From Halorhabdus sp. BNX81 (GTDB lineage: Archaea; Halobacteriota; Halobacteria; Halobacteriales; Haloarculaceae), in contig NZ_CP107254.1 of NCBI RefSeq assembly GCF_029229925.1, forward strand, positions 1,674,001 through 1,738,000: a stretch of DNA of 64,000 bases. The letters run 5' to 3'. Both the position numbers and the translations under genes were made by a program. The notes beneath the pieces were generated by a model that was not told the DNA's origin, did no database searches, and saw nothing but the letters and a program-made list of their open reading frames with translations. Positions within the stretch are counted from its first letter, which is position 1. Every line of letters begins with the position of its first letter. Positions 14,639 to 32,279 of this stretch are shown here, piece by piece.

Positions 14639-14725
14639 CGGAGTATCCGGGCTTCGACGGAGGGAGAGTTAAGCCTGACGGGCGAGGTCTCAGACGATCA
14701 TCTCTCGGACGTTCACGAAATAATC

Positions 14726-14757: not shown

Positions 14758-14849
14758 TAATCGAATAACTAATCAGATTGATAGGATAATGTAGATATAC
14801 AATAAGGCCAGTTCTACAAACCTAGCTTGATAGGTTACCTTCTAAACTT

Positions 14850-15428
14850 TCACTCACCGAGGATTGTTTCGTGCATATGGTTGACATCCTGATAAGAGCC
14901 ACCAACCGACGTATTGCAATTGCACTCGTACGAGAGCACGTCATCCAGTTTGCAAATATTCACTCGCGGGACCCACCCACGAATAGCGCCATCGGGTCGC
15001 TTGAATCGATCATCCTCGTCCGGTAGGTCTCTCACAAGGGGGCTATCGTGAAATTCTAATAGCACGTAATTTGCCGCCCCAGGATCAGTGTTGCAGCTAT
15101 ACGAATCGCCCCAGTCTACAATTTTGCCACTATCCCATCGAGATTCTCTATCGACATGGGCCGGCGAAGCGACGGCACGGAGCGGCACACCCCTATTCCA
15201 GTCGTAGCACCATTCGTCGTCGCCACCCCAGGGATGGACATATAGTTTGGTATTACCAGGTCCGTTTGAGATGAGCGCGACGTCGTCTCCCTCATCAAGG
15301 TTATCGTAGTCGGGCTTGTCGGCCGCAGCGGCTGTTCCGCTTGCTAACCCACCGATTGCAACTCCTATGGAAGCAACACCGATGCTCCGTAGCACTTCTC
15401 GCCTGGAAGGTCGGTTTTGGTACGCCAT
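14850..15428 (-). CDS. Tat-exported protein of unknown function, SH3-like
   Basis: Secreted protein of 192 residues. The N-terminus has a twin-arginine signal (SRREVLRSIGV followed by a hydrophobic run and an AAAA-D cleavage region near residue 35). The mature part has five cysteines and a pattern suggestive of a bacterial SH3-type barrel (DDVALISN, YVLLEFHDSP, GWVPRVNI). I do not recognise a family. A TATA-like box (CATATATG, 15458-15465) lies about 30 bases upstream of the ATG. The gene and its flanks are clearly richer in A and T than the rest of the window, pointing to acquisition by transfer. No neighbour suggests a role. Confidence 0.7.
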   Translation of the reverse strand: MAYQNRPSRREVLRSIGVASIGVAIGGLASGTAAAADKPDYDNLDEGDDVALISNGPGNTKLYVHPWGGDDEWCYDWNRGVPLRAVASPAHVDRESRWDSGKIVDWGDSYSCNTDPGAANYVLLEFHDSPLVRDLPDEDDRFKRPDGAIRGWVPRVNICKLDDVLSYECNCNTSVGGSYQDVNHMHETILGE

Positions 15429-15800
15429 GCGAACAAGTGATGTTTAGTTAGGACTATCATATATGTCTTTCTATAATGTATTCATAATTATGTTTTTTGA
15501 ATTTACTGATGAGTCGAAGATACTAGGCAGATTTCCATAATCTCATCGGCTAATCGGCGTCCATCGTCGCGAAAGAGATACAAAATCTCTTTGTGCGAAA
15601 TCTGGTCCCTTGTCGAATGGTATTTGAAGGCACTATATCTTGATTTCCCCGAAAGACAGTTCAGGCTATTCCTATGACTTTCGTAGGCGAAATGGTCAAA
15701 CTACTTAAACCGGATCTGGGTTTCGTATAGCCGCCGTGAGTAAAGCCTGTGACGACGATTCTGGGCTCGTTATTGTGAGTCCTTCCGTAAACTATGCCGC
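15429..15800. other. AT-rich gene-free stretch with a possible gene remnant
   Basis: 372 bases without a convincing gene. Bases nearest 15428 hold the promoter of the Tat protein. On the minus strand, 15700-15503 stay open for about 65 codons without a start codon and read like protein (for example AFKYHSTRDQISHKEILYLF), so this may be the tail of a broken gene. I could not assign it to a family. The remainder shows no hairpins or repeats. Confidence 0.4.
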
Positions 15801-16772
15801 TCACTCGTGGCCGAAGACTTCGACCGGCTCGTAGGGTTCTTCGAGGTACTCAACGTCGGAGGCGCTGAGATCGACCTCTAGTGCCTCGACGGCATCTTCG
15901 AGATGCTCGATGCTTGAGGTCCCGACGATCGGCGCGTCGACGTGATCGTTCTGGAAGTGCCACGCGAGCGCGATCTGGGCCATCGTCACCCCGTAGTCGG
16001 CGGCGAGTTCCGCGACGCGATCGTTGATCTCCTCGCTCCCTGGCCCCTCGTGATAGGGCGTTCCGTAGTCGAGTTCGTGTTCGCCACGCGTCGTCGCTGT
16101 AAATTCGTCGTGCGGGCGCGTGAGATAGCCCGCCGCCAGCGGTGACCACGGTAAGACACCGATATCCTCCGTCTCGCAGACGGGGTACATCTCGCGTTCC
16201 TCCTCGCGATAGGTCAGGTGATAGAGGTTCTGCATCGTCTCGAAGCGGGCCAACCCTTCCCGGTCGCTGACGTGCAGCGCCTCCTGGAACTGGTGGGCCC
16301 ACATCGAGGAGGCCCCGATGTGACGGACCTTCCCACGCCGAACCGTGTCGTCGAGCGCCCGCAGCGTCGTCTCGATCGGGGTGTCGTAATCCCAGCGATG
16401 GATCTGATAGAGATCTACGGTGTCCATGCCGAGCCGATCGAGACTGTGATCGAGTTCCTGCTCGATAGTCTCCCGGGAGAGTCCCTCGGCGTTGCGGTGC
16501 TCTTTTGCGCCCGAAAACCGGACCTTCGTCGCGACGACCTGCTCGTCTCGATCGTACTCTGCCAGTACATCCCCGAGAATCTCCTCGCTCTCGCCCGAAG
16601 AGTAGGTGTTTGCCGTGTCGAAGAAGTTCACGCCCAGGTCGATCGCCCGCTCGACGAGTTCCCGCCCTTCCTCCGCATCCAGCATCCAGTCGTCCTGACT
16701 CCCGAAGCTCATACAGCCCAGCGCGATCTTTGAGACCTCCATGCCGGTCGAACCGAGTGTCGTGTACTCCAT
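15801..16772 (-). CDS. Aldo/keto reductase
   Basis: NADP-dependent oxidoreductase of 323 residues with a TIM-barrel aldo/keto reductase fold. Catalytic Asp and Tyr are in FFDTANTYSSGESEE, Lys in VVATKVRF and His in LYQIHRWD; the cofactor-binding end is APIVGTSSIEHLEDAV. It resembles the YhdN/Tas-like bacterial group acting on aldehydes or ketones, with substrate unknown. The ATG at 16772 begins the conserved MEYTTLGSTGMEVSKIALG; 24 upstream in-frame residues are judged non-coding. Single gene. Confidence 0.9.
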   Translation of the reverse strand: MEYTTLGSTGMEVSKIALGCMSFGSQDDWMLDAEEGRELVERAIDLGVNFFDTANTYSSGESEEILGDVLAEYDRDEQVVATKVRFSGAKEHRNAEGLSRETIEQELDHSLDRLGMDTVDLYQIHRWDYDTPIETTLRALDDTVRRGKVRHIGASSMWAHQFQEALHVSDREGLARFETMQNLYHLTYREEEREMYPVCETEDIGVLPWSPLAAGYLTRPHDEFTATTRGEHELDYGTPYHEGPGSEEINDRVAELAADYGVTMAQIALAWHFQNDHVDAPIVGTSSIEHLEDAVEALEVDLSASDVEYLEEPYEPVEVFGHE

Positions 16773-19618: not shown

Positions 19619-20383
19619 ATGTCACTTACCCACATGAAATTGCAGGTCGATGGATCGGGGCCGGCGGAACCGTTTCTCGGGGCACGGGATCTCTTTCAAA
19701 CCGAACACGATCTCGCACGGCCGGTCACGGTCCGAATACGCGAAGATCCGGACGAGCGAACGCGGGTCAGTCACGACGCAGCCGGCCACTGCCTGACGAT
19801 TTCTCGACAGGCAGCAACGAGTGCCATGGCGCGTGAACTCGCGCTTCACGAGTTCGGGCACATGCACCACGCCGAAGCGCGCCACCCATCCCATACGCTC
19901 TCGACGGAGGAGGCGATCCTCCTGGCGTTGTCGGGCCAGAGTGTCGAACGCCGGACACTGTCGCAGTGTTATCAGATCGCCAATCACGCGCGGGACATCT
20001 ACGCCGACGACATCTGGATCGACGTCGCACCGGCCGAAAAGCTAGTGGACTTCCTCGAGGCCAGTCTTGCCGCTGCGGTGGCAGATCGGCCGGACGGGCC
20101 GACAGCCTGGGATCGGGTGTCAGGCGGGGCAGATCCGGACATCACAGCAGTCAACGCCGCGTTCGCGCTTGCGATCGTCGAACGTCACGGACTCGTCGAT
20201 ACCGATCACCGACTGTACGACCTGGCACACGCCGCCGCTACCGACGCGCCACAGCTCGGTGTCAACGAGTTCCGGGAGCGCTTTCGGACGCTCGCCCGGG
20301 ATCCGACCGAAAGTGAGTTCCGAGGAGAGTTGGTCGAACTCACCCGCACGTATGCAAGTCGGACCATGCCTGCGGGGGATTGA
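19619..20383 (+). CDS. Conserved haloarchaeal protein with HEFGH motif
   Basis: Protein of 254 residues, mostly alpha-helical. Around residue 75-90 it carries ELALHEFGHMHHAEARHPSH, an HExxH zinc-protease motif followed by more histidines. It has no signal peptide, so it would act in the cytoplasm. It resembles a haloarchaeal family I recall as DUF5781. Proteolytic activity is not shown; the motif and the upstream ISRQAATSAMARE helix suggest a minimal gluzincin-like fold. A second ATG (MKLQVDG, 19634) five codons in may be the true start. It is divergent from EF-2 across the hairpin cluster, and a GGCCCC-AGC-GGGGCC hairpin follows its stop. Confidence 0.75.
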   Translation: MSLTHMKLQVDGSGPAEPFLGARDLFQTEHDLARPVTVRIREDPDERTRVSHDAAGHCLTISRQAATSAMARELALHEFGHMHHAEARHPSHTLSTEEAILLALSGQSVERRTLSQCYQIANHARDIYADDIWIDVAPAEKLVDFLEASLAAAVADRPDGPTAWDRVSGGADPDITAVNAAFALAIVERHGLVDTDHRLYDLAHAAATDAPQLGVNEFRERFRTLARDPTESEFRGELVELTRTYASRTMPAGD

Positions 20384-20431
20384 GACAAGCCGCTGGCGTG
20401 AGTGCTATATCGGTTGACGTACTGCCGGAGC

Positions 20432-20446
20432 GGCCCCAGCGGGGCC
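20432..20446 (+). terminator. GC hairpin after HEFGH-motif gene
   Basis: Six-base perfect arms GGCCCC/GGGGCC around AGC, about 50 bases after the stop of the HEFGH gene. There is no T-run directly after it, so it may be a transcript-end stabiliser rather than a terminator. Confidence 0.35.
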
Positions 20447-20534
20447 ATCATCTCGTCGTTCTTGGGTCGAAAGGAGTGGATCGAGACAACCAATGACGTC
20501 AGTATCTCCGTGATAGTGTCACGCTGGGCTGCAT

Positions 20535-20545
20535 ACTTTTATACG
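20535..20545 (+). promoter_or_regulatory. TATA box of vWA pilin-like gene
   Basis: ACTTTTATACG lies about 35 bases before the ATG at 20574. With initiation 25-27 bases downstream this gives a leader of about 10 bases without a clear Shine-Dalgarno site. Confidence 0.5.
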
Positions 20546-20573
20546 CTCTCACCGACAAATAGGGGTACTAACG

Positions 20574-22922
20574 ATGAGATTCGGGGGAACATCAGCAGCG
20601 ACCTGGCGATCGGACAGGGCCGTTTCCGAACTGATGGGGTACGTTCTGTTGGTGGGGATCGTCATTGGGGGCGCGATCATGGTGGTTATTCTTGGCGCAC
20701 CCATCATGGAAGGGATCCAGGGCCAACAATCGGACGATACAACGGAATTGGCGATGCAGGAAGTCGACGGACGGTTGAGCACACTGTCGGCGAAGGGGGA
20801 GACGGGGACGATGGAATTCTCGTTCGGCGACGGTGGAGAACAGATCCAGGGACAGCCAGAATTAGTTGAGAATCAGGGGTATATCGAAGTTACTATCAAC
20901 GAGAACACGACCTGTTCGGCCCGTGTCGACCTCGATTCGATACGGACCGAGAACGACCGCGGCGAAATACTCGCCTACGAGGCGGGCGGTCTCTGGCGGC
21001 AGTCCGCCGACGGTGGTGTCGTGATGGTCACGCCGCCCTCCGTCTCGATCACGGACGGACACCTCGACATTTCGGTGGTGAACATGACCGGCGAAGTTGA
21101 TCGTGACACCACCCGTGCACTGGTAAACGCCACGACGTCACAAGCGGACTCTACGAAGGCCATCGAATCGCTGTTACAGGGCGAATGCAAGCGGCCGGAC
21201 AACGTCACGATGACGGTCCAAAGTGACTTCTACCAGGCGTGGGGCGAGCACCTCAGCGAAGAAACGGGGTATGAGGTTTTGAGCTCGAACCCAGCTGACG
21301 GCAGCAGTAATCTGACCGTCGACGATACTGCCGAGACAGCCAGAGTCTATCTCAATCAGAGTTCCCTCCCGCCGCGAACGAACGACAGTCAGAACAGCGT
21401 GATCGACGTGACCAACAAGAGTGCCTACATGCAGAACGTCTCGATCACCGGGAACGGCATCGCCGTCGATAAGAACGCCAACAACAACTACACCGTCTAC
21501 GCTGAACCGGTGGTCGATGACGTGGAGATCGGAACCATTCGACGGGTCTCCGCCGACGATAACGTGACGCGTCGTCCACTTGATGTGGTGTTCGTGGTCG
21601 ACGAGTCCGGGTCGATGGGTGATGATGGGCCAATGGGAACAGAAAAACGGGAATCGACCCGTGAGGCCATCCGAAACTTTACAACGTATCTTGACAGCGA
21701 TATTGACCGTGTTAGTTTGGTCGGATTTCAAGAAATGGGACCGGATTCTCGATTCCCCTACGACCACCCAAATTACGGTCGAATCTATAGAACGAATGGT
21801 AATATGTTGACAAATAATTTTGAAGCATTTAATGATACTTCAGGAGGCACCTTGGAAAAACTCCAAGCAGACGGGTGGACCTACACGGCGGGTGGGATGA
21901 AGAAGGCAACGGCTTTGCTTGAGCTTCGCAGCAATGAATCGAGAGATAAAATCATCGTACTACTTTCAGACGGCAAAAACACTCACAACCACGAGGAAGA
22001 CTGGTGGGTCAACGGAGACACGTATGAATCTGGGCAAACGTATACGCCGAATATTGAAACCTACTCGGGCGAAGACGAAACAGGGACAAATGCTGCAACG
22101 GTCCAAATGGCAAAGCTCGCCAGGAAGACTGGTGTGACAACGTACAGTGTGGGTTTCGGGATCCAGTCAAATATCCCCGATGACTTCTTGGAAGACGTCG
22201 CTGATGCGGGCGGTGGCTGGTACAACTATACGTCAAATCAAGACGAACTACGGGAGGCATTCAAACTGATCGCAAAGCGCGTCTCCAGCACCCAACAAAT
22301 CGGTCGGACGCCGCTGTCGACGAACCTCTCGGCAGGTGGGACCATTCAACCGCCACAGATCACTGGCAACACCGGCAATGTTGCCAACGTGACCAAGAAC
22401 GGCAATACCTTCTTGAACGCCAACGACCCGCTGGCCCCGTCGTCGTTCAGCCACTCCTTTTCGGTGGGTGGCGGTGACATGGTCAACTTCAGCGCATCGA
22501 CGTATAGCTGCAACGAGTGGGTCGCGACGAGTATGACCAAGACGCTCAACGGGTCGACATACCCAGTGACACGCTGTGCGAATATGTCGACCACGAATGC
22601 GACGACGCTCGATAAAAACAACGTCAGCGTCTTCACGAATACCGATTCGGCAGCCTTCAATCGGAATATTTCGGGCACAAACACCTCCGGATGGCAGACG
22701 AATCTCACAGATGCCGTCGTCAATCGGTCGCTCTACAACAGGACGAGCAATAAGCTCACGCTGGCCAGCAACGAGGTGCTCGTCCTCTTTGACTTCCCCG
22801 ACGGGAAGAACACGGACAACAAGATGTTGATGCTCTACACGGTTGGGCTCAGCGATCGGGCAGCACCCACCGGAATAATCGATTTCGAGGTCAGCAACGT
22901 CAAACTCGAACGCGGGTCCTGA
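20574..22922 (+). CDS. Pilin-like surface protein with von Willebrand A domain
   Basis: Predicted pilus-borne adhesin of 782 residues. The N-terminus has an archaeal type IV prepilin layout: SDRAVSE, then hydrophobic LMGYVLLVGIVIGGAIMVV, so processing near Arg-Ala by a PibD-type peptidase is likely. Residues about 45-330 are a pilin-like beta-rich scaffold. Residues about 335-570 form a vWA domain with MIDAS residues DESGS (343-347), a Thr in YTAGG and Asp in LLSDGKNT, so metal-dependent binding of a ligand is expected. A further N-glycosylation-rich scaffold follows. The vWA segment (about 21576-22283) is noticeably more AT-rich than the flanks. The gene points toward the pil operon and ends 37 bases from its last gene. 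Confidence 0.85.
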   Translation: MRFGGTSAATWRSDRAVSELMGYVLLVGIVIGGAIMVVILGAPIMEGIQGQQSDDTTELAMQEVDGRLSTLSAKGETGTMEFSFGDGGEQIQGQPELVENQGYIEVTINENTTCSARVDLDSIRTENDRGEILAYEAGGLWRQSADGGVVMVTPPSVSITDGHLDISVVNMTGEVDRDTTRALVNATTSQADSTKAIESLLQGECKRPDNVTMTVQSDFYQAWGEHLSEETGYEVLSSNPADGSSNLTVDDTAETARVYLNQSSLPPRTNDSQNSVIDVTNKSAYMQNVSITGNGIAVDKNANNNYTVYAEPVVDDVEIGTIRRVSADDNVTRRPLDVVFVVDESGSMGDDGPMGTEKRESTREAIRNFTTYLDSDIDRVSLVGFQEMGPDSRFPYDHPNYGRIYRTNGNMLTNNFEAFNDTSGGTLEKLQADGWTYTAGGMKKATALLELRSNESRDKIIVLLSDGKNTHNHEEDWWVNGDTYESGQTYTPNIETYSGEDETGTNAATVQMAKLARKTGVTTYSVGFGIQSNIPDDFLEDVADAGGGWYNYTSNQDELREAFKLIAKRVSSTQQIGRTPLSTNLSAGGTIQPPQITGNTGNVANVTKNGNTFLNANDPLAPSSFSHSFSVGGGDMVNFSASTYSCNEWVATSMTKTLNGSTYPVTRCANMSTTNATTLDKNNVSVFTNTDSAAFNRNISGTNTSGWQTNLTDAVVNRSLYNRTSNKLTLASNEVLVLFDFPDGKNTDNKMLMLYTVGLSDRAAPTGIIDFEVSNVKLERGS

Positions 22923-22959
22923 ACTAAGGACGGAATCGCTATTTTGCCGTCGTAGATAC

Positions 22960-23790
22960 CTAGCCTGCGAACGAGACCGAGACGTTCGTTTGCCTGACGT
23001 ACACACGATCGAGTGATCCGCCACAGGTCGCTGTCGAACTGGAGACACTCCAGTTGTCGGCACTACTGAAGTGATCCATCCACAGGGACTCCCGTGGCGA
23101 GTCAAACTCCAGTGCGACACTATTGGCACCCGATGCGCTCCCTGACCCTGTTCGATCAACCGGATAAATTAGTTCAGTGCCGTTGTGCGTAGCCGTGATT
23201 TCAAGCGGACCATCGCTCTGGATCGATCCCATCTCCGCGGATTCGATCGTAACAAACGATAGGATAGCAACGTCGTCAGTACAGACGAACTTCGGACCGG
23301 TATTCATGATGCCGCCGTCTTTCTGTTGGCGGAACGTCGCCCCGGTCTCGTAGGAGACGTTCGTCGAACCACTTGAGTAGACGAGCGCATCAAGCGGAAC
23401 TGTGTACGTTGGACCACCTGAACTTGGATTTATCGTGATATCCACCGTCGATCCCCGTTCGATGTCGATCGCTCCGCCCGACAGATCGAGCGTCTCGATG
23501 CGCGTCACAGCGGTTCCCTCCTCGATGCTTTCGAGCGATTGGCCGACAATCTCGAAGCTCTGCTCGGCGTTGTCGAGTTGTTGGCTGTCCCGAAACTCCC
23601 CGAGCTGGGAGAACCCGACCGTCGCGACGAGGCCGACCGAGAAGATGATGATCGCGAACGTAAGCGAGAAACCGACGAGTTCGGACAGGGCTCGGTCGGT
23701 AGACTCCTCGGAGAAGAACAACGACGTATCGGCTCGGTTGGGCGATTTTTCGGACCGAGTGAAGCCAGTTTTCCGGCGTTTATCCGTCAT
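22960..23790 (-). CDS. Pilin-like protein, last gene of pil operon
   Basis: Predicted pilus subunit of 276 residues. After a basic, polar leader, STDRALSELVGFSLTFAIIIFSVG forms the prepilin signal and hydrophobic core; a coiled region and beta-rich C-terminal part with several N-glycosylation sequons follow. The scaffold resembles the N-terminal part of the convergent vWA protein (both contain a block like YxxGxxxRQxxDGGxMxxxP), so the two are probably paralogues (DUF7289-like, from memory). The ATG at 23790 lies one base after the stop of the lectin-bearing gene. The open frame extends 33 codons further, overlapping that gene, but no start there is better supported. Confidence 0.78.
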   Translation of the reverse strand: MTDKRRKTGFTRSEKSPNRADTSLFFSEESTDRALSELVGFSLTFAIIIFSVGLVATVGFSQLGEFRDSQQLDNAEQSFEIVGQSLESIEEGTAVTRIETLDLSGGAIDIERGSTVDITINPSSGGPTYTVPLDALVYSSGSTNVSYETGATFRQQKDGGIMNTGPKFVCTDDVAILSFVTIESAEMGSIQSDGPLEITATHNGTELIYPVDRTGSGSASGANSVALEFDSPRESLWMDHFSSADNWSVSSSTATCGGSLDRVYVRQTNVSVSFAG

Positions 23791-23791
23791 T

Positions 23792-25543
23792 TTATTCATC
23801 CTCGAAGACAGTTCGATAACTTTTGTCGTCGTACCAGTATCGGAGACCGACTGTTGTCTGAATTGGGTTCCCCCCACCTCTGAGCCCACGGAGTTGAATT
23901 TCTACTTCTTCATTCCTCGGAATTGAGATGTGAGGAATCTCGACTATTGTCCCGTCTCCGTCCTTCGGGAACGATAGTTTGCCGAGTTCCACGTTGTGGT
24001 CCCAACTCCCATCGTTCCCGATATCGACCATCATTTCGGCCCCGTAATTGTTTTCGAGATAGTTCGCCTCCGAATTGAGTAGCAAGTCCGATAGTGTGAT
24101 CCCCGAATTCCAGTCGTTTTCGACCGTGAAGCTGAGACACTTTCCGCCCGTGGCTTTCTTTATTTGCTTCAGTTTCCATTTTTGGGAATCAGCTAGAGGT
24201 GATGTAAGAGAATACTGGAACACATCATCACTGTAGGGATCGGCTGTCAATGCGTCTCCACTGTGTACGGCGATGATCCGATACGTACCGTCTCCATTGT
24301 CCTTGATCTCCCAGTGCTGATTATCGCCGCCTGAGTAGCCCCATTGAATGATGTTCGCGCCATCACTGGTTGACCCACCAGAAACGTCAAGAGCTTTATC
24401 GGTCGCATGAGCGGGCGTGAGACGATATACTTTATTTCCGACTGCGGTTATATTCCATAACTCGTGGTCGTTATTGTTGTACCCTCCATGCTCAACGTTA
24501 GCCCCATCGCTTGTATCCCCATTTTCGACTTCTAATACATCGTTACTGTCTTCGTTCGTTATCTTGTATTGTCCTTCTTCAATAGCGTCTGGTGGAATAT
24601 AATTGCAGGACGGGTCAGTATTCATGCTGCCCGTATCATAAGTCAGCCCGGACACCGTGATATTTCGTGACACGGTTCCGATACCACCCTCGTCGTCAAC
24701 GACTTTCAACGTCACATTGGTTTCGCCGCTTCCAAGTGATGTGTTGTAGCGTGCCCCCTCATTAGACATATTCACCGGCGGGCTTACAGTCTGGTTGTCG
24801 AATATCCAGTGGTAGGCGTCGATCGTTCCGTCCGGATCTCGACTATTAGAGGCGTTGAATTGGATCGTCTGGCCGCTTTGGGGAAATGATCGATTGAGCG
24901 TGAACTTGGCGATCGGCGGTCTGTTGAACGGATTCAGCACCCGGCCGGTCGAATGAGGGTTGACTCCTTTTGCGATGCCGATAGAGAGGGTCTGGTCCAT
25001 CGGGATGACGCCCGAGGTTGTCGATGTCCCACCCGTCCGCGTCGCGGTGAGCGTGAACGTCGTCGAATCCAGACGATCTATCGAAACATGGACGTTCGAA
25101 TCATTGTGGACGGGGAACCCGCGGACGAGGTTCTCCCCGCCGCGTGCCACATCAACCTCGAGACACGTATTCGCCGACGAGACCAGGGGGCATTCCCCGG
25201 GCGGTTCAAGCGAGACCGAGTACGTATCCGACATCACTGCGGCCGGTTGATCGACGCGTAAGGTCGCCTGCTGGCTATCGCCTCCGAGGCGGGCAGCATC
25301 TTCGAGCTGGGTCGCCAGTTCCGTGCCGACGGTCTCGATTTGCTGGCGTGCGCCCGCCTCCTGTTGGTTTTCGAGATACCCGTTAGCGGCCAAAATCAGC
25401 CCGAAGATCAACACGGTGGTCATGCCGATCGACAGCGAGTGGGTCACCGGGGTCGAAAGCCCCCGGTCGTCGTGGCGTATCGATCGCCCGCTGTGGGCGG
25501 GCGTCGGCGGTTCAGGCTCGCTGTGGCGGTTGGTTGAGTTCAT
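23792..25543 (-). CDS. Pilin-like protein with PKD and ricin-B lectin domains
   Basis: Predicted pilus adhesin of 583 residues. DDRGLSTPVTHSLSIGMTTV and the hydrophobic run to about residue 54 form the pilin-like N-terminus. Residues 209-298 are a PKD domain (PIAKFTLN, GTIDAYHWIFDN, VTLKVVDDEGG). Residues about 322-463 form a ricin-B lectin domain with repeated Q-x-W-type signatures (DHELWNIT, NQHWEIKDNGDGTYRI, SQKWKLKQ) and DVSGGSTSDGANI, implying binding of a sugar. Residues 470-583 return to a pilin-like beta scaffold. The ricin segment (about 24155-24580) is clearly more AT-rich than its flanks. The ATG overlaps the upstream stop as ATGA. A comparable family without the extra domains is DUF7266-like (recalled, unverified). 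Confidence 0.85.
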   Translation of the reverse strand: MNSTNRHSEPEPPTPAHSGRSIRHDDRGLSTPVTHSLSIGMTTVLIFGLILAANGYLENQQEAGARQQIETVGTELATQLEDAARLGGDSQQATLRVDQPAAVMSDTYSVSLEPPGECPLVSSANTCLEVDVARGGENLVRGFPVHNDSNVHVSIDRLDSTTFTLTATRTGGTSTTSGVIPMDQTLSIGIAKGVNPHSTGRVLNPFNRPPIAKFTLNRSFPQSGQTIQFNASNSRDPDGTIDAYHWIFDNQTVSPPVNMSNEGARYNTSLGSGETNVTLKVVDDEGGIGTVSRNITVSGLTYDTGSMNTDPSCNYIPPDAIEEGQYKITNEDSNDVLEVENGDTSDGANVEHGGYNNNDHELWNITAVGNKVYRLTPAHATDKALDVSGGSTSDGANIIQWGYSGGDNQHWEIKDNGDGTYRIIAVHSGDALTADPYSDDVFQYSLTSPLADSQKWKLKQIKKATGGKCLSFTVENDWNSGITLSDLLLNSEANYLENNYGAEMMVDIGNDGSWDHNVELGKLSFPKDGDGTIVEIPHISIPRNEEVEIQLRGLRGGGNPIQTTVGLRYWYDDKSYRTVFEDE

Positions 25544-26541
25544 GTGTTCCCTCCGTAGACAGTGATATTTCGTTGCTGAGCGTACTGGATGGCGCTCGAT
25601 CGGTACGTGAGATTCACTGACCCGTTCCAGACGGCCGGCGTGCTACAGGCTGGTGTGGACGTGGTCTGGCAGTCCGGGAATGTGAAACTCCACTGGGGAG
25701 GAGTCGACCATACTGTTTGCGTGACGATCGAATACGTCCCATTGATCCGGTTCCCGTTCTCGATCGAAACAGTATACGGCGATTCGAGATGATCCTCGAT
25801 ACCAGTGAACGAACACTGATCGAACGCCCCCTCCCCGTCTACCAGATCGACGAGGACACGCCCACCCGTCGCCGTACAGTTGGCTGTTCCAAGAGTTCCC
25901 GTCGAATCGCTGACATCAACGCTGAGATTGTTGCCGTTGCCGGCCTCCGAACGGTTCATCGAATATTCGAGAAATTCGGTTGTGTCTCCAGCGACCGTGA
26001 TATTTGCCTGGTCCGCACTCACGTTCCGAAGATCGACGTTCAGGAGATACCAGCCGATATCGGTTTCTTGGCCCGACTGGATGACGTCCCAGTCGTGGTT
26101 GTTCGAGTTTGTCGGATCAGTGAAGTTTCGGTTCGTCGTCTGGAGGAGTCGCGTACCGTTCCTGAGTGTCTTCCGGTATGAGACGTTCGCATAGACGGTT
26201 CCCGACGTGGCGAACGAGCGGCCAAGCGCCGCGCTGTAGTTCCCAATCGATTGCGTGACGTTCTCGGTAAGGGCATCCACACCCCGGTTGTACTCGGCGT
26301 GGTTGACCCGGAGCATGATCGACCGACTCGTCTTGCCGGCTTCGAAGGCAAACCCATCGACGTTGTTCACTTCTGCCGAAACACGTTGCCCGTCCGTATT
26401 CTGGGTGAACAACACCGTGTTGACGACCAGCGACAGGACGACAATCACGACAGCCAAGACGACCGCCCCGACTAACAACAGTTGCCCGCGTCGATTTTCG
26501 GGGAGCGCTCGCCATCGGCCGGCGCTCGATTCGATCACCAT
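25540..26541 (-). CDS. Pilin-like protein of pil operon (DUF7261-like)
   Basis: Predicted minor pilin or pilus-assembly protein of 333 residues. NRRGQLLLVGAVVLAVVIVVLSLVV gives an Arg-Gly prepilin-type site followed by a helix, with a long N-glycosylation-rich extracellular part. Four cysteines in two pairs near the C-terminal half (for example FPDCQTTSTPACSTP) may form disulphides. It starts inside the end of the upstream gene (seven-base overlap) and its stop overlaps the next start as ATGA. Confidence 0.75.
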   Translation of the reverse strand: MVIESSAGRWRALPENRRGQLLLVGAVVLAVVIVVLSLVVNTVLFTQNTDGQRVSAEVNNVDGFAFEAGKTSRSIMLRVNHAEYNRGVDALTENVTQSIGNYSAALGRSFATSGTVYANVSYRKTLRNGTRLLQTTNRNFTDPTNSNNHDWDVIQSGQETDIGWYLLNVDLRNVSADQANITVAGDTTEFLEYSMNRSEAGNGNNLSVDVSDSTGTLGTANCTATGGRVLVDLVDGEGAFDQCSFTGIEDHLESPYTVSIENGNRINGTYSIVTQTVWSTPPQWSFTFPDCQTTSTPACSTPAVWNGSVNLTYRSSAIQYAQQRNITVYGGNT

Positions 26542-27212
26542 ACGATCAATCGCACCTCCAGGACGTTGTACACAGACCCGTCGACGGCGTTGGGTACCGG
26601 GTAGTACCCGCTCTTTCCAGGCTGCGGATTCTTGGTAGGATGAGTATCATATTGCCATAGTTCGGCCGTCCCGGCCGAGTCAGCGGTCAGCGTCATGTTG
26701 TCATACAGCACGACGCGCTGTGACGCGATGACCGAGCCCGTCGAGGGCGTCCCCTGGGAGGCCATCGTCACCGACCCGGTTCCGTTCGAGGGATCGGGCT
26801 GCAAGTACGACACCTCCACGTTGTACAGCCGACCACGGGAGGTGAATGTCTCATTCAATATCTGCCCGAGTTCACCCGGAATCCGGGTGGTTCCGTAGCC
26901 GATGTCGGGGTTCACAGCGCCGCTAAACGTGCGTTGACTCTGTGACCAGTTTCGGACAAGTTCCGAGAGCGGTTCCTCCTCAGCCTGAGACGCGATCAAG
27001 AGGGTGTCCTCAGCCTCTTGCTGCAGATCGGTGCGGACTGATGAATCGATCGCGCCTCCGGTCGTTGGCGTGACGACGACGACCTGGACGGCATACAACA
27101 ACGCCGTGATGACGAGGATCGCGCCGATCAGGCCTTCGAGGGTAAACGCCTGTCCGCGGTCGCTCTCTCGTGACCGCTCCTGTCCGGCCGGTTTGTGGGT
27201 AGGCCCGGTCAT
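26535..27212 (-). CDS. Pilin-like protein of pil operon (DUF7288-like)
   Basis: Pilin-like protein of 225 residues. SDRGQAFTLEGLIGAILVITALLYAVQVVVV is the processing site and hydrophobic helix; the EGLIGAILV core is close to classical type IV pilin. The remainder is a predicted beta-rich extracellular domain. The ATG at 27212 is two bases after the previous stop; a GTG at 27221 could add three residues and overlap it. Confidence 0.75.
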   Translation of the reverse strand: MTGPTHKPAGQERSRESDRGQAFTLEGLIGAILVITALLYAVQVVVVTPTTGGAIDSSVRTDLQQEAEDTLLIASQAEEEPLSELVRNWSQSQRTFSGAVNPDIGYGTTRIPGELGQILNETFTSRGRLYNVEVSYLQPDPSNGTGSVTMASQGTPSTGSVIASQRVVLYDNMTLTADSAGTAELWQYDTHPTKNPQPGKSGYYPVPNAVDGSVYNVLEVRLIVW

Positions 27213-27214
27213 CG

Positions 27215-27688
27215 TTACCACACCTTGACGATCAATCGGTACGCTGGCTCGGTCGACCCGGGAACGTCGACGGAGACGATCCGACTCGACTTCCCAAATT
27301 CGTCACGCGTGACGGGGTCCCCAACCATGGCGACCGGGGCCGACCCGTCGAGATATTCGACGGTAACGTTCAGATGCATCGACGAGCCGACGCCGAACCG
27401 ATCTTTCAGGTCGGTCGTCGAGAGGCTGAACAGCGCCATTGCGTTGGTTCCATTCAACGTGTTCGGCTCTGCCGGCATCGAGAGATTCGACACGATGGTC
27501 GATGTGACCCGATCAGCGGCTGCCTGTTCATCGCCGCCGACAGACGACTCGAACGGCGTCAACAGTCCCGGAATGAGCGACAGCACGAGGACGAACCCGA
27601 GCATGAAGATACTGATTCCGAGGACGAAATCCTGTAACGTCTGTCCGCGGGTATCCATCGGTCGCTGTCTTCCCTGGTCTTGCCCCAT
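27215..27688 (-). CDS. Pilin-like protein of pil operon (DUF7287-like)
   Basis: Small pilin-like protein of 157 residues, the first subunit gene after pilC. DTRGQTLQDFVLGISIFMLGFVLVLSLIPG is the predicted signal and helix. The short extracellular region has few distinguishing marks (SSMHLNVTVEYLDG). One base separates it from pilC, so it is in the same transcript. By position and size it could be a core or initiating subunit, which is inference. Confidence 0.75.
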   Translation of the reverse strand: MGQDQGRQRPMDTRGQTLQDFVLGISIFMLGFVLVLSLIPGLLTPFESSVGGDEQAAADRVTSTIVSNLSMPAEPNTLNGTNAMALFSLSTTDLKDRFGVGSSMHLNVTVEYLDGSAPVAMVGDPVTRDEFGKSSRIVSVDVPGSTEPAYRLIVKVW

Positions 27689-27689
27689 G

Positions 27690-29732
27690 TTACCCCCCCA
27701 CAGCTATCCACACCACGAGCGAGACGGTCATCAGCGCGACGGCGTATTTCAACCCGGAGATGATCCGGACGTTCCGGATATACCCGGCGATGACGGCCGA
27801 GAAGATGGCCTGCAACGAGACGGCGTGGAAGAACAGCATCGACAGCATGTCGTTGCTGGGCATGCTCGAACCGAAGTCCTGGCCACCCATCGCCTCCCCG
27901 CCGGAGCTGGCGGTCTGCTGGGAGAGGCCGGCCATCGTCTCGAAGAACTGGACTTTGAGCATGGCGATGACACCGAGCAGCGTCAGGAACGTCATGATGA
28001 TGATGACGACCTGCATCCGTGTCCGTGACTTACGATCCCGGTCGATGTCGTCCTGGTTCTCGCTCGCCTGGGCAGCCGTCGAGAGGACGTCTTGAATCTG
28101 GTTCGAGGCCTCCTGGGCCTCGCTAATGAGCTTGACCGTCCGACTGAGTCGTGGGACGTGATACTTGTTGTTGAATTCCCGGAGTGCCTGCTTGAGGTTC
28201 GTCCCGTAGTTGACCTTCCGGTGCATGATCGAGAACTCGTCAGCCAATCGGCCGGATGAGGTCTGGGCGACGATATTCAGCGATTCAAGCAGGGTCATCC
28301 CGGTCTCGTTTGCGCTTGAGAGTTTCCGAAGGTTCTCCGAGAGCTTCCCAATGACCGACCGACGATAGCGGACGTTCCATTCGTGGAAGATGGCCAGCGG
28401 AATGAAATTGATATACGCCGGCATATACAGCCAGAAAAACGTCCCCTGGAGCGGATTAGACTGCATTCCCGCCAGGGAGGTGGGTGCCCAGCCAATCACG
28501 ACGGTGAACACGAGCGCAACCAGCGTTATGGGAATCGTCACCGCCAGCACGTATGGCGGGTTGTCGCGCAGGAAAATGTGGGGCGCTCGCAGTATCTCGA
28601 TCACCTGATGGGTCCCCTCCCGGCTGTTGATCCGATCGAAAATGCTGTAACTTCCGGTGTACTGCTCGATCAGGCCGAGACTGAAGAGGTTGGTCTCACC
28701 TTCGATCTGGGCGCGCTTTTTCGGGTCGTCCGGGAGCAAGAAGCCGTTGCTGCTTTCGTCCGAGGTAACCGTCGAGACGAGCACGAGGAACGCGACGTTG
28801 ATCATCGGGATCAGCCCGTAGACAGTGATGTACATGAGATCGGTACTCGCGTTGCCCATCATGCTCATGACGACGAGGATGATGATCAACAAAAGCGGGA
28901 ACAAAGACAGCGTCATGTACATCTCCCCGAACAGTTCGAGGGTTTCGAGCATGCGCTGTTGTTCCTGTTTGCTCGTGCGCATGTACTTGTTCTTCTGATC
29001 TTCGAGGAACGACGTCATGTCCCCGCCGGAGTCGACGATCGAGAGCATGTCCGTCAGGAACTGACTCAGCTCGTCGCTCGGCGTCTGGATCGCTTGATTG
29101 CGAATCGCCGTCCGGTAGTCCGTGTCGAAGTAGGTCGTCTCCAGGACGATACTCTGGAACTCCTTTGCGACCTCGCCGTAGGTGTCGTCAGCCGCCGCGA
29201 TCGCTTCGAGGATATCGAGTTGGTTGAGCCCGCCGACCGACAACGCGTACATGAACGAGACCGCATCGGAAAGCATGACGTTGATCTCACGCTCGCGAGC
29301 ACTCGCCCGGAAGTAGGGAATCGAAACGAGCGAACCGAACCCGACCGCAAACCCGATCGTCCCGAAAAACAGTCCCGAGACGATCATCAGGAACGGAAGC
29401 TTGAGTGCCTGGACTATCGGGAGAATACCCTCGGGGAGTCCAAGCCCAAGAAACGACGGCATTTCGCCGGCAAATAGCGTCGCCACGAGGAGGTAGCCAA
29501 GCAGCATGCCGACGAGCCACAGTGATGTTCCCGCGATCGTGCCCACGGCCAGGGCCCGTGAAAGGAACATCTCGACGTTATCTGCCATGCGCGCTTCCGC
29601 CAGTTTCGTCTCGACGTTGGCGACGAAGTCACCGTCCTCGTCGAACAGGCGGCCAAAGAGGGGATAAAACATGTCGCCAAGGCCCCCGGACTCACCGATG
29701 GGTGACCCCCCGCGTCGCGTCTCGAGACTCAT
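27690..29732 (-). CDS. pilC: PilC/TadC-like type IV pilus membrane platform protein
   Basis: Inner-membrane platform of 680 residues for pilus assembly, belonging to the type II secretion F / TadC group. It has two halves, each with a cytoplasmic helical bundle followed by hydrophobic segments (for example LLLIIILVVMSMMG and VVIIIMTFLTLLGVIAML), and an N-terminal membrane pair around residues 60-140. This duplicated layout is usual for archaeal PilC/ArlJ relatives. The start codon overlaps the pilB stop as ATGA, showing translational coupling to its motor. Confidence 0.9.
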   Translation of the reverse strand: MSLETRRGGSPIGESGGLGDMFYPLFGRLFDEDGDFVANVETKLAEARMADNVEMFLSRALAVGTIAGTSLWLVGMLLGYLLVATLFAGEMPSFLGLGLPEGILPIVQALKLPFLMIVSGLFFGTIGFAVGFGSLVSIPYFRASAREREINVMLSDAVSFMYALSVGGLNQLDILEAIAAADDTYGEVAKEFQSIVLETTYFDTDYRTAIRNQAIQTPSDELSQFLTDMLSIVDSGGDMTSFLEDQKNKYMRTSKQEQQRMLETLELFGEMYMTLSLFPLLLIIILVVMSMMGNASTDLMYITVYGLIPMINVAFLVLVSTVTSDESSNGFLLPDDPKKRAQIEGETNLFSLGLIEQYTGSYSIFDRINSREGTHQVIEILRAPHIFLRDNPPYVLAVTIPITLVALVFTVVIGWAPTSLAGMQSNPLQGTFFWLYMPAYINFIPLAIFHEWNVRYRRSVIGKLSENLRKLSSANETGMTLLESLNIVAQTSSGRLADEFSIMHRKVNYGTNLKQALREFNNKYHVPRLSRTVKLISEAQEASNQIQDVLSTAAQASENQDDIDRDRKSRTRMQVVIIIMTFLTLLGVIAMLKVQFFETMAGLSQQTASSGGEAMGGQDFGSSMPSNDMLSMLFFHAVSLQAIFSAVIAGYIRNVRIISGLKYAVALMTVSLVVWIAVGG

Positions 29733-32257
29733 TCCTCTTCGACCCCGTCGGAGCCTGCCTTGGGCACGAACCGGCCGAAGTCGACGTCATCGTCATCGTC
29801 CTTGGCGCTCCCGTCGTCACTGTCGACATCGGTCAGTGCGCTCACGATGTCCGTCCGGGCCTGCTCCTTATAGCGGTCGAACAGCGGCGTGGCGTTTTCG
29901 AGGACATCCTCGGCCTCCGTCAATAGCTCGTCCGGCGGATCCGGTCGCGGAACCATCTCCTCTTTGGCCGGGTCGACCGTGATCTGGACGGATTCCATTT
30001 CCCGGAGGTCCTCCAGGCTGTGATCGAGTTGATCGTTGGCGATCAGCGTCATGATCGTCTTTGGATCGTTGATGAACGCCTGCAGCGTCGCGGCCACCTC
30101 GGTGTAGGTGTTCAGGCCCTGCTCGATGAGATACGCGAGGACGACCTTCCGCATGAACAGTTCCTCGTCGAGGGTGTCCTGGTCCCACCCGCGGTCGAAC
30201 TTGATCTCCTCTAAGGTGCTCGAAGAGCCCATCTGGAGGAACTCGTCGGACTCGGCCTGCCACTGGTAGACGTCCCTGACGTTGATTTCGTCGTTTTCCG
30301 GGGAGTACTCGTTGATCTCGGTCAACGTCTTGTTCCGGCGGACCTTCCGACCCTGCACCCGGGTCTGGGTCTGGATCGAAACCAGATCCAGCGCCGTAAA
30401 CAGCGTCTTCGAGACGTTGATCGGGTCGGTCGTGAACCGTTTGATGACCTCGCCGACCGTGTCGGCGTGGAACGTCGAGTAGCCGGTGTGACCGGTCGAC
30501 ATGACCTGGAAGAGGTCACGCCCTTCCTCGCCACGGACCTCGCCCATGACGATGTAGTCCGGGCGCTGGCGGAGCGCGGCCTCCAGCAGGTCGAACTCGT
30601 CGATGTCCCCTTGCTCATCCTCGCCGAAGGAAGGCCGGGTCACCGAGGCGACCCAGTTGCGCTGGGGGAGTTCGACCTCGCGGGTGTCCTCGATCGAGAC
30701 GATCTTGGCGTTGCTGGGGATGAAAAGCGAGATAGCGTTCAGCGAGGTCGTCTTCCCCGACGCCGTGCCGCCCGCGAAGATCATCGACTTGTTGTTCTCG
30801 ATGGCAAGCCAGAGAAACGCCATCTCGTCCAGGGAGAACGTGTTCCAGTTGATGAGGTCGACCGGCGTGAACGGAACGTCCTTGAACTGACGGATCGTGT
30901 AGTTGGTCCCGTGATCGGAGACCTCCCGTCCCAGGGTGAGCTGGGCACGCGAGCCGTCGGGCAGCGTCGCGTCGACCTGCGGCTGGCGCTTTGAGATACC
31001 TTTCCCTGATCGCTGTGCGAGTTTCACCACGAAGTCGTCGAGGTCGCTCTCGCCGTGCTCGACGTTGGTGATGATCTGCTCGTAGTCGGTGTGGTAGGCG
31101 AACACCCGGGAGTTGTACCCGTCACACGAGATGTCCTCGACGTTGATGTCGTGTTTGATCGGGTCGATCTTGCTGTAACCGATGTAATCACGCTTGAGCA
31201 AGTATAGCAGCTTCTCGACCTGGTATTCCGAGAGGGTGTCGGGGTCCTCTTCGAGGATCGCCGGTTCCGGTCGCGCCGCAATCCCGTCGAGCCCATCCGA
31301 TTCCTCGGCTGGTTCGATTGCCTGTGTCTCGGTATCCATTCCCACGAGCTGTTTGAGCCAGTCTGTCGATCCCGTTCCCGACTCGATATTGTCGTCGTAC
31401 ACGTCGTAGCGCTGCAGTAAATCCTGGGCCTCGCGTTCGATGACGGCGGCGCGATCGGCGTCCTCGTCTTCGACCCCGACGCCCTCTTCGGCGTACTTGA
31501 TCGCCGTCTTGAGTTTGTTCCCGAGGAACTCCTTTAATTCGCGCTCGATGTCGTTGAGCGCCGGTTCGACGACGTAGTACTTGCGTTCGTTCTCCTTTTT
31601 CGAATGAAAGAGGACGACACAGGCGTAGGGCTTGTTGACCCAGTAGCGCTCGACTTCCTCGAAGTGACGCTTCTTTTCCATCGGGACGGCCCGTTCGAGG
31701 TCGTAGCGATTGACGACCGTCGTGTTCCCCTCGACCGTCGAGAAGAACGCGTCCTCGTCTAACTCCTCGTTGACGTCGACGGTTCGCTCCTCGACGAGGT
31801 CTTTCAATTCACTCGCGCGGTTCTGGCCATGACTCAGGCGTCCCTCCGTCTCGTCGGGATCAAACCCGAGGTGTTGGCTTTTGTCGAAGGGGATTTTCTC
31901 CCCGTCCGTCCGTGGGTGGGACCCGTCGGCGTCGTAATAGTACTCCTGTTTGAAATGTTCCCAGAGATACGTCCCCTTGACGACCGGGGTGGTCTCGGGA
32001 TCGAGGAACGCCTGCCAGTGGGTATTCAGGGTTCTGGCGTCACTCGCCCGCGCCGTGAGAAGGTCGGCAGTCCGGTGTGGGTCGAATCCGAGGTACTCGC
32101 TCCGGTCGAACGCACCGCCGTCGTGGAACTCACGCCGAAAATCCACCCAATCATAGGCGTCTTCGTCGTCAGTTTGGTCGTCGTCGCTGTCCCCAAGCAG
32201 CGAGGTGGCACGAGAGCGAAGCTTATCGCCCCCACCATCTTTGTCATCAATTGCCAT
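29729..32257 (-). CDS. pilB: PilB-like type IV pilus assembly ATPase
   Basis: Cytoplasmic motor ATPase of 842 residues that drives pilus assembly. Walker A FAGGTASGKTT lies near residue 495, the Asp box and Walker B-like RPDYIVMGEVRGEEG near 570, and the His box in GHTGYSTFHADT. A long N-terminal region (about 450 residues) with an acidic leader precedes the GspE/VirB11-type core, as in haloarchaeal PilB proteins. It is the first gene of a seven-gene run with overlaps or one- to two-base gaps. I choose ATG 32257; a GTG at 32275 is possible, but the T-rich box at 32281-32289 is 25-30 bases before 32257. Confidence 0.92.
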   Translation of the reverse strand: MAIDDKDGGGDKLRSRATSLLGDSDDDQTDDEDAYDWVDFRREFHDGGAFDRSEYLGFDPHRTADLLTARASDARTLNTHWQAFLDPETTPVVKGTYLWEHFKQEYYYDADGSHPRTDGEKIPFDKSQHLGFDPDETEGRLSHGQNRASELKDLVEERTVDVNEELDEDAFFSTVEGNTTVVNRYDLERAVPMEKKRHFEEVERYWVNKPYACVVLFHSKKENERKYYVVEPALNDIERELKEFLGNKLKTAIKYAEEGVGVEDEDADRAAVIEREAQDLLQRYDVYDDNIESGTGSTDWLKQLVGMDTETQAIEPAEESDGLDGIAARPEPAILEEDPDTLSEYQVEKLLYLLKRDYIGYSKIDPIKHDINVEDISCDGYNSRVFAYHTDYEQIITNVEHGESDLDDFVVKLAQRSGKGISKRQPQVDATLPDGSRAQLTLGREVSDHGTNYTIRQFKDVPFTPVDLINWNTFSLDEMAFLWLAIENNKSMIFAGGTASGKTTSLNAISLFIPSNAKIVSIEDTREVELPQRNWVASVTRPSFGEDEQGDIDEFDLLEAALRQRPDYIVMGEVRGEEGRDLFQVMSTGHTGYSTFHADTVGEVIKRFTTDPINVSKTLFTALDLVSIQTQTRVQGRKVRRNKTLTEINEYSPENDEINVRDVYQWQAESDEFLQMGSSSTLEEIKFDRGWDQDTLDEELFMRKVVLAYLIEQGLNTYTEVAATLQAFINDPKTIMTLIANDQLDHSLEDLREMESVQITVDPAKEEMVPRPDPPDELLTEAEDVLENATPLFDRYKEQARTDIVSALTDVDSDDGSAKDDDDDVDFGRFVPKAGSDGVEEE

Positions 32258-32279
32258 TGCCCTATGTTCTCTCACTCAT

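What the first reader, a model, noticed from the sequence alone, without database searches (positions are those of the whole stretch)
20574..32257. Type IV pilus locus armed with vWA and lectin pilin-like proteins
Seven overlapping genes (pilB, pilC, five pilin-like) face a sixth pilin-like gene. All six subunits share an Arg-Gly or Arg-Ala site just before a hydrophobic helix (DRAVSE, DRALSE, DRGLST, RRGQLL, DRGQAF, TRGQTL), the archaeal prepilin layout. Two carry extra binding domains: a MIDAS vWA, and PKD plus ricin-B lectin. This predicts a pilus with tip or side adhesins for a sugar and for a metal-dependent ligand. vWA tip adhesins are known on some bacterial pili; a paired lectin and vWA on an archaeal pilus is not something I know to be described.
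Basis: partly seen in the sequence, partly recalled or inferred. Interest (0 to 1): 0.75.

Follow-up and report, generated by a model that had tools for sequence, protein, structure and literature searches.

The report
Swappable sugar-grabbing pili in salt archaea
A salt-loving archaeon encodes what looks like a hair-like surface fibre bearing two different gripping parts, and comparison with relatives shows that the fibre's gene set, and the sugar-binding part on it, get swapped beside a nearly unchanged assembly machine.

Summary
Window 20574-32275 encodes PilB, PilC and six pilin-like proteins, all six with an archaeal-type prepilin site and helix (0 of 175 outside ORFs match). One carries a vWA domain with an intact MIDAS, another PKD plus ricin-B lectin. 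The base operon is ordinary: its DUF7288 pilin is in 366 of 391 class genomes. The armed form, a DUF7289-vWA pilin beside a DUF7266-PKD pilin, was found in 26 genomes. Its lectin varies: ricin-B only here, Laminin_G_3 in 11, malectin in 2, none recognised in 12. In the two congeners with the most similar PilC (92-93%), everything after the pilC stop codon, up to the next gene, is replaced. A Salinigranum plasmid carries an armed pilin set but no PilB-family ATPase. Best reading: an exchangeable adhesin cassette, probably at a pilus tip. The same vWA-plus-lectin pair is known on Streptococcus sanguinis pili, on other pilins, so this is a new archaeal variant of a known principle. Processing, assembly and binding are untested; structure models failed.

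The parts
20574..22922 (+). vWA modular pilin, 782 aa: prepilin site R15-A16 (DRAVSE), DUF7289 pilin part aa 15-260, vWA with MIDAS aa 337-471, conserved C-terminal part to aa 782; convergent with the operon
22960..23799 (-). DUF7289 pilin without cargo (listed from GTG 23889; ATG 23799 or 23790 more likely)
23792..25543 (-). lectin modular pilin, 583 aa: DUF7266 aa 25-114, PKD aa 207-296, ricin-B beta-trefoil about aa 305-463 (insert against 16 homologues), shared C-terminal domain about aa 464-583
24155..24631 (-). ricin-B insert itself (about aa 305-463) with QxW-like motifs ELW361, QHW409, QKW454
25540..26541 (-). DUF7261 pilin, 333 aa
26535..27221 (-). DUF7288 pilin, 228 aa (marker of the operon family)
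27215..27688 (-). DUF7287 pilin, 157 aa
27690..29732 (-). pilC / TadC-type platform protein, 680 aa; its stop codon is the edge of the exchanged stretch
29729..32275 (-). pilB / VirB11-family assembly ATPase, 848 aa (ATG start possible at 32257)
20367..27691 (.). exchangeable pilin cassette: stretch with no nucleotide match (blastn, E 1e-10) to congener G050 at the same site

Best explanation
This is a haloarchaeal type IV pilus locus whose minor pilins carry adhesin modules. PilB (ATPase) and PilC (platform) would assemble pilins that the prepilin peptidase has cut at the R-A or R-G site. Two pilins present extra modules: the DUF7289-vWA pilin a metal-dependent binding face, the DUF7266-PKD-ricin pilin a glycan-binding beta-trefoil held out by a PKD spacer. 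Bulky modules should fit best at the filament tip, as modelled for S. sanguinis. The likely glycan is an environmental polysaccharide such as xylan or arabinan, because the three other ricin-bearing proteins found in this genome are GH11, GH43 and beta-helix proteins. The set of six pilins is an exchangeable cassette beside a nearly constant pilB-pilC, and the lectin is a second, finer level of exchange. Shown: genes, domains, prepilin-type sites, MIDAS residues, differing lectin modules on one carrier, cassette replacement. Inferred: processing, assembly, tip position, ligands, adhesion.
For: Domains above Pfam cut-offs. MIDAS and cleavage Arg invariant in 19 of 19 aligned orthologues; DUF7289 and VWA in 19 of 19 scanned. 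Prepilin test 6 of 6 pilins against 0 of 175 outside ORFs; one Peptidase_A24 match in the genome. A profile of the vWA pilins matches, besides ordinary vWA proteins, solved pilus adhesins: type IV pilus protein PilB (7b7p, 5.2e-9), Mfa5 (5.7e-13) and 'cell wall surface anchor' proteins (species and the names GBS104 and RrgA are recalled). In 25 of 25 fetched armed loci the vWA pilin lies 0.7-2.1 kb from the long DUF7266 pilin, 22 times on the opposite strand. PKD in 26 of 26, DUF7266 in 24 of 26; ricin 1, Laminin_G_3 11, malectin 2. Armed DUF7288 rows are one side of a branch, 99/95, 25 rows against 27. PilC tree puts the window with G050 and G079 (100/99), whose pilins are 23-31% identical to the window's; nucleotide homology breaks at 27691-27692, the pilC stop. 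Plasmid-borne armed set on a record with no PilB-family ATPase. Other ricin domains on GH11, GH43 and beta-helix proteins.
Against: No structure model: single-sequence AlphaFold gave mean pLDDT 36.0 and 33.6. No expression, processing or binding data. 12 of 26 armed loci show no recognised lectin, so the lectin is not essential to the system. In 10 of the 25 other armed loci no pilB or pilC is in the stretch fetched (some stretches end near the set or at a contig edge), so the link to this motor is by neighbourhood. Two armed loci look damaged: L099 (vWA gene in two frames, DUF7266 start missing) and L102 (two stops in the DUF7266 start). DUF7289-vWA proteins also occur without the other pilins: 9 of 9 further ones fetched from families f3 and f7 have no other pilin-set match within 20 kb, so vWA alone does not mark this system. 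The first ricin subdomain has ELW in place of QxW. The polysaccharide ligand is a guess by association. In Pseudomonas and Caulobacter, PilY1 vWA or minor pilins are linked to surface sensing (PMC9210963, PMC12607857; titles and abstract starts only).
Confidence: 0.7

Rival explanations
1. A cell-surface sugar-capturing scaffold like the Sulfolobus bindosome: the lectin and vWA pilins form a short envelope structure that holds polysaccharide near the cell for secreted hydrolases, not an extended adhesive pilus.
For: Substrate-binding proteins with pilin-type processing sites, assembled by PilB/PilC homologues, are known in Sulfolobus; H. volcanii PilB4-PilC4 was proposed to build a pilus-like structure of two relatively large pilins (PMC4371748 passages). 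PilB matches the BasE model, though far below its cut-off (182.7 of 1000 bits). GH11, GH43 and beta-helix proteins with ricin domains in the genome.
Against: No substrate-binding-protein domain in the set; five small or medium pilins look like filament parts; solved pilus adhesins are among the best profile matches of the vWA pilin.
Confidence: 0.2
2. A pilus for cell-cell recognition (aggregation or mating): the lectin reads S-layer glycans of other haloarchaea, and cassette swapping changes partner choice or escapes pilus-using viruses.
For: Replacement of the whole pilin set between near relatives while PilB and PilC stay at 90-93% fits diversifying selection on exposed parts; pilB4 and pilC4 transcripts fall during HFTV1 infection of Haloferax gibbonsii (PMC12542753 passages).
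Against: No direct evidence of partners; the other ricin domains found in this genome are on GH11, GH43 and beta-helix proteins; the passages seen do not show virus binding to these pili.
Confidence: 0.2
3. The vWA pilin is a tip assembly or mechanosensing factor (as proposed for PilY1) and the lectin pilin the only adhesin.
For: The vWA pilin is constant in armed loci while the lectin varies or is absent, as expected of a core factor; vWA in PilY1 is linked to surface sensing (PMC9210963, title and abstract start).
Against: MIDAS residues are invariant in 19 of 19, which suggests ligand binding; 2 of 2 scanned plain loci have a DUF7289-DUF7305 protein there instead, so vWA is not needed for assembly as such.
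Confidence: 0.25
4. A T2SS-like pseudopilus that exports the polysaccharide hydrolases.
For: Shared ATPase and platform families.
Against: No second membrane, so no secretin, is expected in a haloarchaeon (general knowledge; not searched); the ricin-bearing hydrolases read here begin with twin-Arg stretches that look like Tat signals (judged by eye).
Confidence: 0.03

Closest known systems
Streptococcus sanguinis type IV pilus minor pilins PilB and PilC
   Same: Two modular pilins in one locus: one vWA with MIDAS, one Ig-like spacer plus lectin; in 11 of 26 loci the lectin here is ConA-like too (Laminin_G_3), as in PilC.
   Different: DUF7289 and DUF7266 pilin parts (no bacterial pilin family matched); the window's lectin is a ricin-B trefoil; vWA gene convergent to the operon; function unproven. 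Independent origin is inferred, not tested by a tree.
Haloarchaeal PilB4-type type IV pilus (Makarova et al. 2016, Fig. 4B)
   Same: VirB11 ATPase and TadC-type protein with its own pilin set; a marker pilin in 366 of 391 class genomes; a variable-length minor pilin prone to duplication was noted (arCOG02911); the abstract names adhesins among extra components.
   Different: Its main text has no lectin, ricin or PKD; in the passages seen, vWA proteins are regulators or, for bacterial TadG, pilus anchors, not pilin modules.
Pilus vWA adhesins RrgA, GBS104, Mfa5
   Same: MIDAS vWA presented on a pilus; profile matches to solved structures (names RrgA and GBS104 recalled).
   Different: Not type IV pilins (recalled); no lectin partner compared here.
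Sulfolobus bindosome
   Same: Large subunits with pilin-type processing sites and substrate-binding function, assembled by PilB/PilC homologues (PMC4371748 passages).
   Different: Subunits resemble transporter-type substrate-binding proteins, not lectins or vWA.

Membership tests
Archaeal type IV pilus system | VirB11-family ATPase plus TadC-type platform protein | tested here: met
   T2SSE 3.2e-31, T2SSF 5.3e-30; archaellum motor model FlaI 404.2 bits, below its cut-off of 550
Archaeal type IV pilus system | Linked pilins with class III signal peptide (R/K-A/G site, then hydrophobic helix) | tested here: met
   6 of 6, against 0 of 175 outside ORFs; PilC also hit at an internal helix
Archaeal type IV pilus system | Prepilin peptidase in the genome | tested here: met
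   one Peptidase_A24 match, 40.7 bits, cut-off 26.5
Archaeal type IV pilus system | Proteins processed and found in filaments | not testable with these tools
   needs mass spectrometry of pili
Makarova PilB4-type (clade 2, Fig. 4B) | ATPase in clade 2 with extra N- and C-terminal domains | tested here: inconclusive
   848 aa, Pfam ATPase match only from aa 427; PilB3_C 28.3 bits (cut-off 27), PilB3_N 24.2 bits (below 27); no ATPase tree with named references was made
Makarova PilB4-type (clade 2, Fig. 4B) | Own pilin set next to pilB-pilC, present across haloarchaea | tested here: met
   DUF7288 in 366 of 391 class genomes, Haloferax volcanii the one control that rings; adjacency checked only in the loci fetched
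Modular pilins (S. sanguinis PilB/PilC principle) | Non-pilus functional domain grafted on a pilin part | tested here: met
   DUF7289 + VWA, 19 of 19 scanned; DUF7266 + PKD, 17 of 17 and 7 of 9 (PKD in 9 of 9)
Modular pilins (S. sanguinis PilB/PilC principle) | Bacterial pilin part (IPR012902) | tested here: not met
   no bacterial pilin N-terminal family among Pfam matches to E 1 for the two modular pilins (a weak ComP_DUS match, 14.1 bits, is below cut-off); it works like them but is not a member
Modular pilins (S. sanguinis PilB/PilC principle) | Module binds ligand; subunit at the tip | not testable with these tools
   needs binding assays and microscopy
Ricin-B / CBM13-type lectin | Beta-trefoil with three QxW-type repeats | tested here: met
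   2.1e-28 and 9.1e-21; ELW, QHW, QKW, the first deviating; PDB relatives incl. ThreeFoil 3.4e-43 and xylanases
vWA with MIDAS | DxSxS, T, D metal site | tested here: met
   D343, S345, S347, T436, D466 invariant in 19 of 19

The most novel reading that the evidence does not exclude
Haloarchaea run an exchange system for pilus specificity. pilB-pilC stays fixed at one chromosomal site, whole pilin cassettes (also carried on a plasmid without a PilB) are swapped in right after the pilC stop codon, and on the armed cassette one carrier pilin takes lectin modules of three different families (ricin-B beta-trefoil, ConA-like Laminin_G_3, malectin) beside a constant vWA pilin. This re-invents, in another domain of life and on other pilins, the vWA-plus-lectin pair of S. 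sanguinis.
Probability: 0.45. Interest if true: 0.75.

Novelty: new variant of a known kind. Interest (0 to 1): 0.62.

Why it matters
What archaeal pili stick to is mostly unknown. This locus names two specific, testable adhesin modules on a predicted archaeal pilus, and the 26-locus comparison offers natural variants that differ chiefly in the lectin (for example G069 against G272). If confirmed, it would show that bacteria and archaea each arrived at a vWA-plus-lectin pilus, and that pilus specificity in haloarchaea changes by swapping cassettes beside a nearly constant motor. It would also suggest that polysaccharide-degrading haloarchaea anchor to their food by pilus-borne carbohydrate-binding modules.

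Tried and rejected
Structure prediction: window proteins folded alone gave mean pLDDT 36.0 (PKD-ricin-C-terminal part) and 33.6 (vWA pilin); not used, and no fold search was run.

The search for related loci on genome contigs with the lectin pilin gave one bacterial locus matching the PKD stretch only: dropped.

Idea that the lectin was borrowed from this genome's own hydrolases: own-genome ricin matches are 41-53% identical, several over short stretches; matches of 45-49% occur in other species. The donor is open.

Idea that armed loci are a recent invention of this genus: rejected, armed rows from families f1 and f4 share one branch.

Idea that a DUF7289-vWA protein by itself marks an armed locus: rejected. 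Nine more such proteins (893-997 aa; families f3 and f7, chosen from the list by long frames) all carry DUF7289 and VWA, with no other match to the window's pilin set, PilB or PilC in their 20 kb. They are not counted among the 26.

Archaellum: the FlaI model scores below cut-off; no archaellum search of the stretch was made.

Rows left out: A1 left out L093, L099, L102 (cut or late-starting DUF7266 frames), scanned apart (L093's genome as L133). A2 left out L099 (vWA gene in two frames) and, being fetched later, L127-L132. The tree left out G164's armed copy (L133) and one duplicate row. One search gives lectin counts, not members; members were assigned from alignment A1 and the eight without lectin rescanned one by one.
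Full report
WHAT IS THERE. The window is part of a 2.83 Mb single-contig genome (G000:C1:1674001-1738000). Its DUF7288 family rings in only one of 14 control genomes, Haloferax volcanii, so I take it for a haloarchaeon. On the minus strand pilB (29729-32275), pilC (27690-29732) and five pilin-like genes follow each other almost without gaps; a sixth, at 20574-22922 on the plus strand, converges on them. Pfam names the five DUF7287, DUF7288, DUF7261, DUF7266 and DUF7289, and the sixth DUF7289 plus VWA. The DUF7266 protein also carries PKD (aa 207-296) and a ricin-B lectin (aa 322-456). All pass the curated cut-offs; DUF7261 (28.8 bits, cut-off 27) and PKD_4 (31.4, cut-off 27) only just.

MORE THAN CHANCE. 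It hits all six pilins, PilC once at an internal helix, and none of 175 ORFs of 100 aa or more in the rest of the window. The genome has one prepilin-peptidase-type match (Peptidase_A24, 40.7 bits). In 19 aligned full-length orthologues of the vWA pilin, the MIDAS residues D343, S345, S347, T436 and D466 and the cleavage-site Arg15 are invariant. In 17 aligned DUF7266-PKD pilins Arg27 of the site is invariant.

THE BASE OPERON IS ORDINARY. The DUF7288 marker is in 366 of 391 class genomes. Of 19 plain loci fetched (L106-L124), 12 have a DUF7266 pilin of 145-173 aa, 3 a longer frame (L107 451 aa, L109 241, L124 350), and 4 no DUF7266 match to the window's protein. Two convergent DUF7289 proteins of plain sets were scanned; both carry DUF7305 where the armed one has vWA. 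This resembles the PilB4-type system of Makarova et al. 2016 (PMC4858521; sections 11 and 12 read), but I did not place PilB on a tree with named references.

THE ARMED VARIANT. Full-length vWA-pilin orthologues (pilin, vWA and C-terminal parts) are in 20 of 146 genomes of the family (one, G391, in two frames) and 20 of 391 of the class sample (14 in family f1, 6 in f4). Together these are 26 genomes, whose loci I fetched (the window itself for G000). In 25 of the 25 others a long DUF7266 pilin lies 0.7-2.1 kb from the vWA pilin, on the opposite strand in 22. Pfam finds PKD in 26 of 26 of these pilins and DUF7266 in 24 of 26 (G164 scanned as L133); in the other two, L099 and L102, the start of the frame is missing, and in L102's genome it holds two stops. 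A DUF7288 tree puts 25 armed rows on one side of a branch (99/95), 27 plain rows on the other; 0 of 500 label shuffles do so. Armed and plain sets lie side by side in L093, L099 and L105, so duplication followed by divergence is likely. DUF7289-vWA proteins also exist outside such sets: 9 of 9 further long ones from families f3 and f7 carry VWA but have no other pilin-set match within 20 kb.

THE LECTIN VARIES. Over the 26 loci the DUF7266-PKD pilin carries ricin-B once (this window), Laminin_G_3 eleven times, malectin twice (2.3e-11 and 5.8e-31), and no recognised glycan-binding family twelve times. The ricin domain is a clean insert (about aa 305-463) between PKD and a C-terminal domain common to the 17 aligned; Laminin_G_3 and malectin sit after that domain. 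So the modules entered at different points. G069 and G272 (L090, L092) are 94% identical over 1748 bp covering most of this gene, yet one has the Laminin_G_3 stretch and the other lacks about 1 kb there: gain or loss is recent. The four armed congeners G144, G139, G268 and G318 have no ricin.

THE WHOLE PILIN SET IS EXCHANGEABLE. In five congeners the locus lies between DUF5781/EF-2 and an aminotransferase/Lrp gene, and in the sixth, G318, on the one side that its contig reaches. In G050 and G079, nucleotide homology with the window runs through pilB and pilC (89% and 85%) and stops at 27692 and 27691, the pilC stop codon; for G050 it resumes at 20366 in DUF5781. Between lies another pilin set in inverted order, with a 2267-aa (G050) or 1874-aa (G079) protein bearing a DUF7289-like start and CARDB repeats; G050 has a plain set besides. 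By protein, PilB is 90-91% and PilC 92-93% identical to G050 and G079, their pilins 23-31%. For the armed congeners PilB is 81-82% (3 of 4 measured), PilC 81-85%, pilins 43-71%. A PilC tree groups the window with G050 and G079 (100/99), away from the armed congeners. The simplest history is replacement of an ancestral armed set in the G050/G079 line; the direction was not tested. In 10 of the 25 other armed loci (L095-L100, L102-L104, L130) no pilB or pilC is in the stretch fetched (for L102, L103 and L130 little upstream was read). A six-gene armed set lies on a 437-kb plasmid of Salinigranum marinum (NZ_CP100462.1): DUF7287, DUF7288, one pilin-sized gene without Pfam match, DUF7266 with two PKD and a malectin match below cut-off (19.9, cut-off 23), DUF7289, DUF7289-VWA. 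The whole plasmid has no match to the PilB family PF00437, so a motor would have to come from elsewhere in the cell.

HOW IT MOST LIKELY WORKS. Shown: genes, domains, sites, conservation, module and cassette differences. Inferred: the prepilins are cut, PilB-PilC build a pilus, and the two bulky modular pilins cap it. The vWA site binds a ligand through a metal ion; the lectin binds a glycan. A profile of the vWA pilins matches solved pilus adhesins, among them type IV pilus protein PilB (7b7p, 5.2e-9) and Mfa5 (5.7e-13), but its best match is a hypothetical membrane protein (4rck, 9.9e-18), and ordinary vWA proteins such as collagen VI and anthrax toxin receptor 2 also appear. The ricin insert matches ThreeFoil, xylanases and several lectins in the PDB. 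The three other ricin-bearing proteins that the search found in this genome are GH43, GH11 and beta-helix proteins, so a plant-type polysaccharide is my guess for the ligand.

AGAINST WHAT IS KNOWN. S. sanguinis PilB is a pilin with vWA and PilC a pilin with an Ig-like and a ConA-like lectin module, modelled in one complex (PMC8179133 and PMC9934059, passages). The haloarchaeal pair has the same kinds of part on pilins of other families. The former paper's survey of modular pilins used the motif IPR012902, and the word 'archaea' does not occur in its main text. The Makarova main text has no lectin, ricin or PKD, though its abstract names adhesins among extra components. Seven searches of an open-licence library listed no paper on archaeal pilins with lectin or vWA modules that I could see from titles and abstract starts; subscription papers and preprints are not in it. 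The Sulfolobus bindosome is the nearest archaeal precedent for sugar-binding pilin-like proteins, and H. volcanii PilB4-PilC4 was proposed to build a structure of two relatively large pilins (PMC4371748 passages).

VERDICT. An intact, well-conserved variant of a known kind of pilus locus. The new points are the variable lectin, the exchangeable cassette with its sharp edge at the pilC stop, the plasmid copy without a PilB, and the likeness to the S. sanguinis pair.

Noticed in passing
L134 12182-17806 (G079) and L135 11024-17827 (G050): In the replaced cassettes a 1874-aa and a 2267-aa protein with a DUF7289-like start (by BLAST to the vWA pilin; no Pfam DUF7289 match) and CARDB repeats: giant pilin-like proteins of unknown role.
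   Followed up: partly
L141-L149, one gene each (893-997 aa): DUF7289-vWA proteins in families f3 and f7 with no other pilin-set match within 20 kb: apparently stand-alone vWA pilins.
   Followed up: partly
L099 whole: Two full pilin sets plus part of a third; the armed vWA pilin is in two frames, and a neighbouring 1180-aa protein carries VWA plus several PKD domains.
   Followed up: partly
L094 8190-10225 (G139): pilC is split into two ORFs (238 and 440 aa) overlapping by 4 nt: a split gene or a sequencing error.
   Followed up: no
L136 6729-8828, L108 10824-12896: In two plain sets the convergent pilin is DUF7289 plus DUF7305, so vWA seems to take the place of DUF7305 in the armed form.
   Followed up: partly
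L125 6299-9631, L126 8860-11944: Own-genome GH43, GH11 (two genes) and beta-helix proteins, three of the four with ricin-B domains: probably a polysaccharide degrader.
   Followed up: partly
window 14001-16000: Local G+C dip to 0.519 against about 0.62-0.65 on either side, left of the locus.
   Followed up: no
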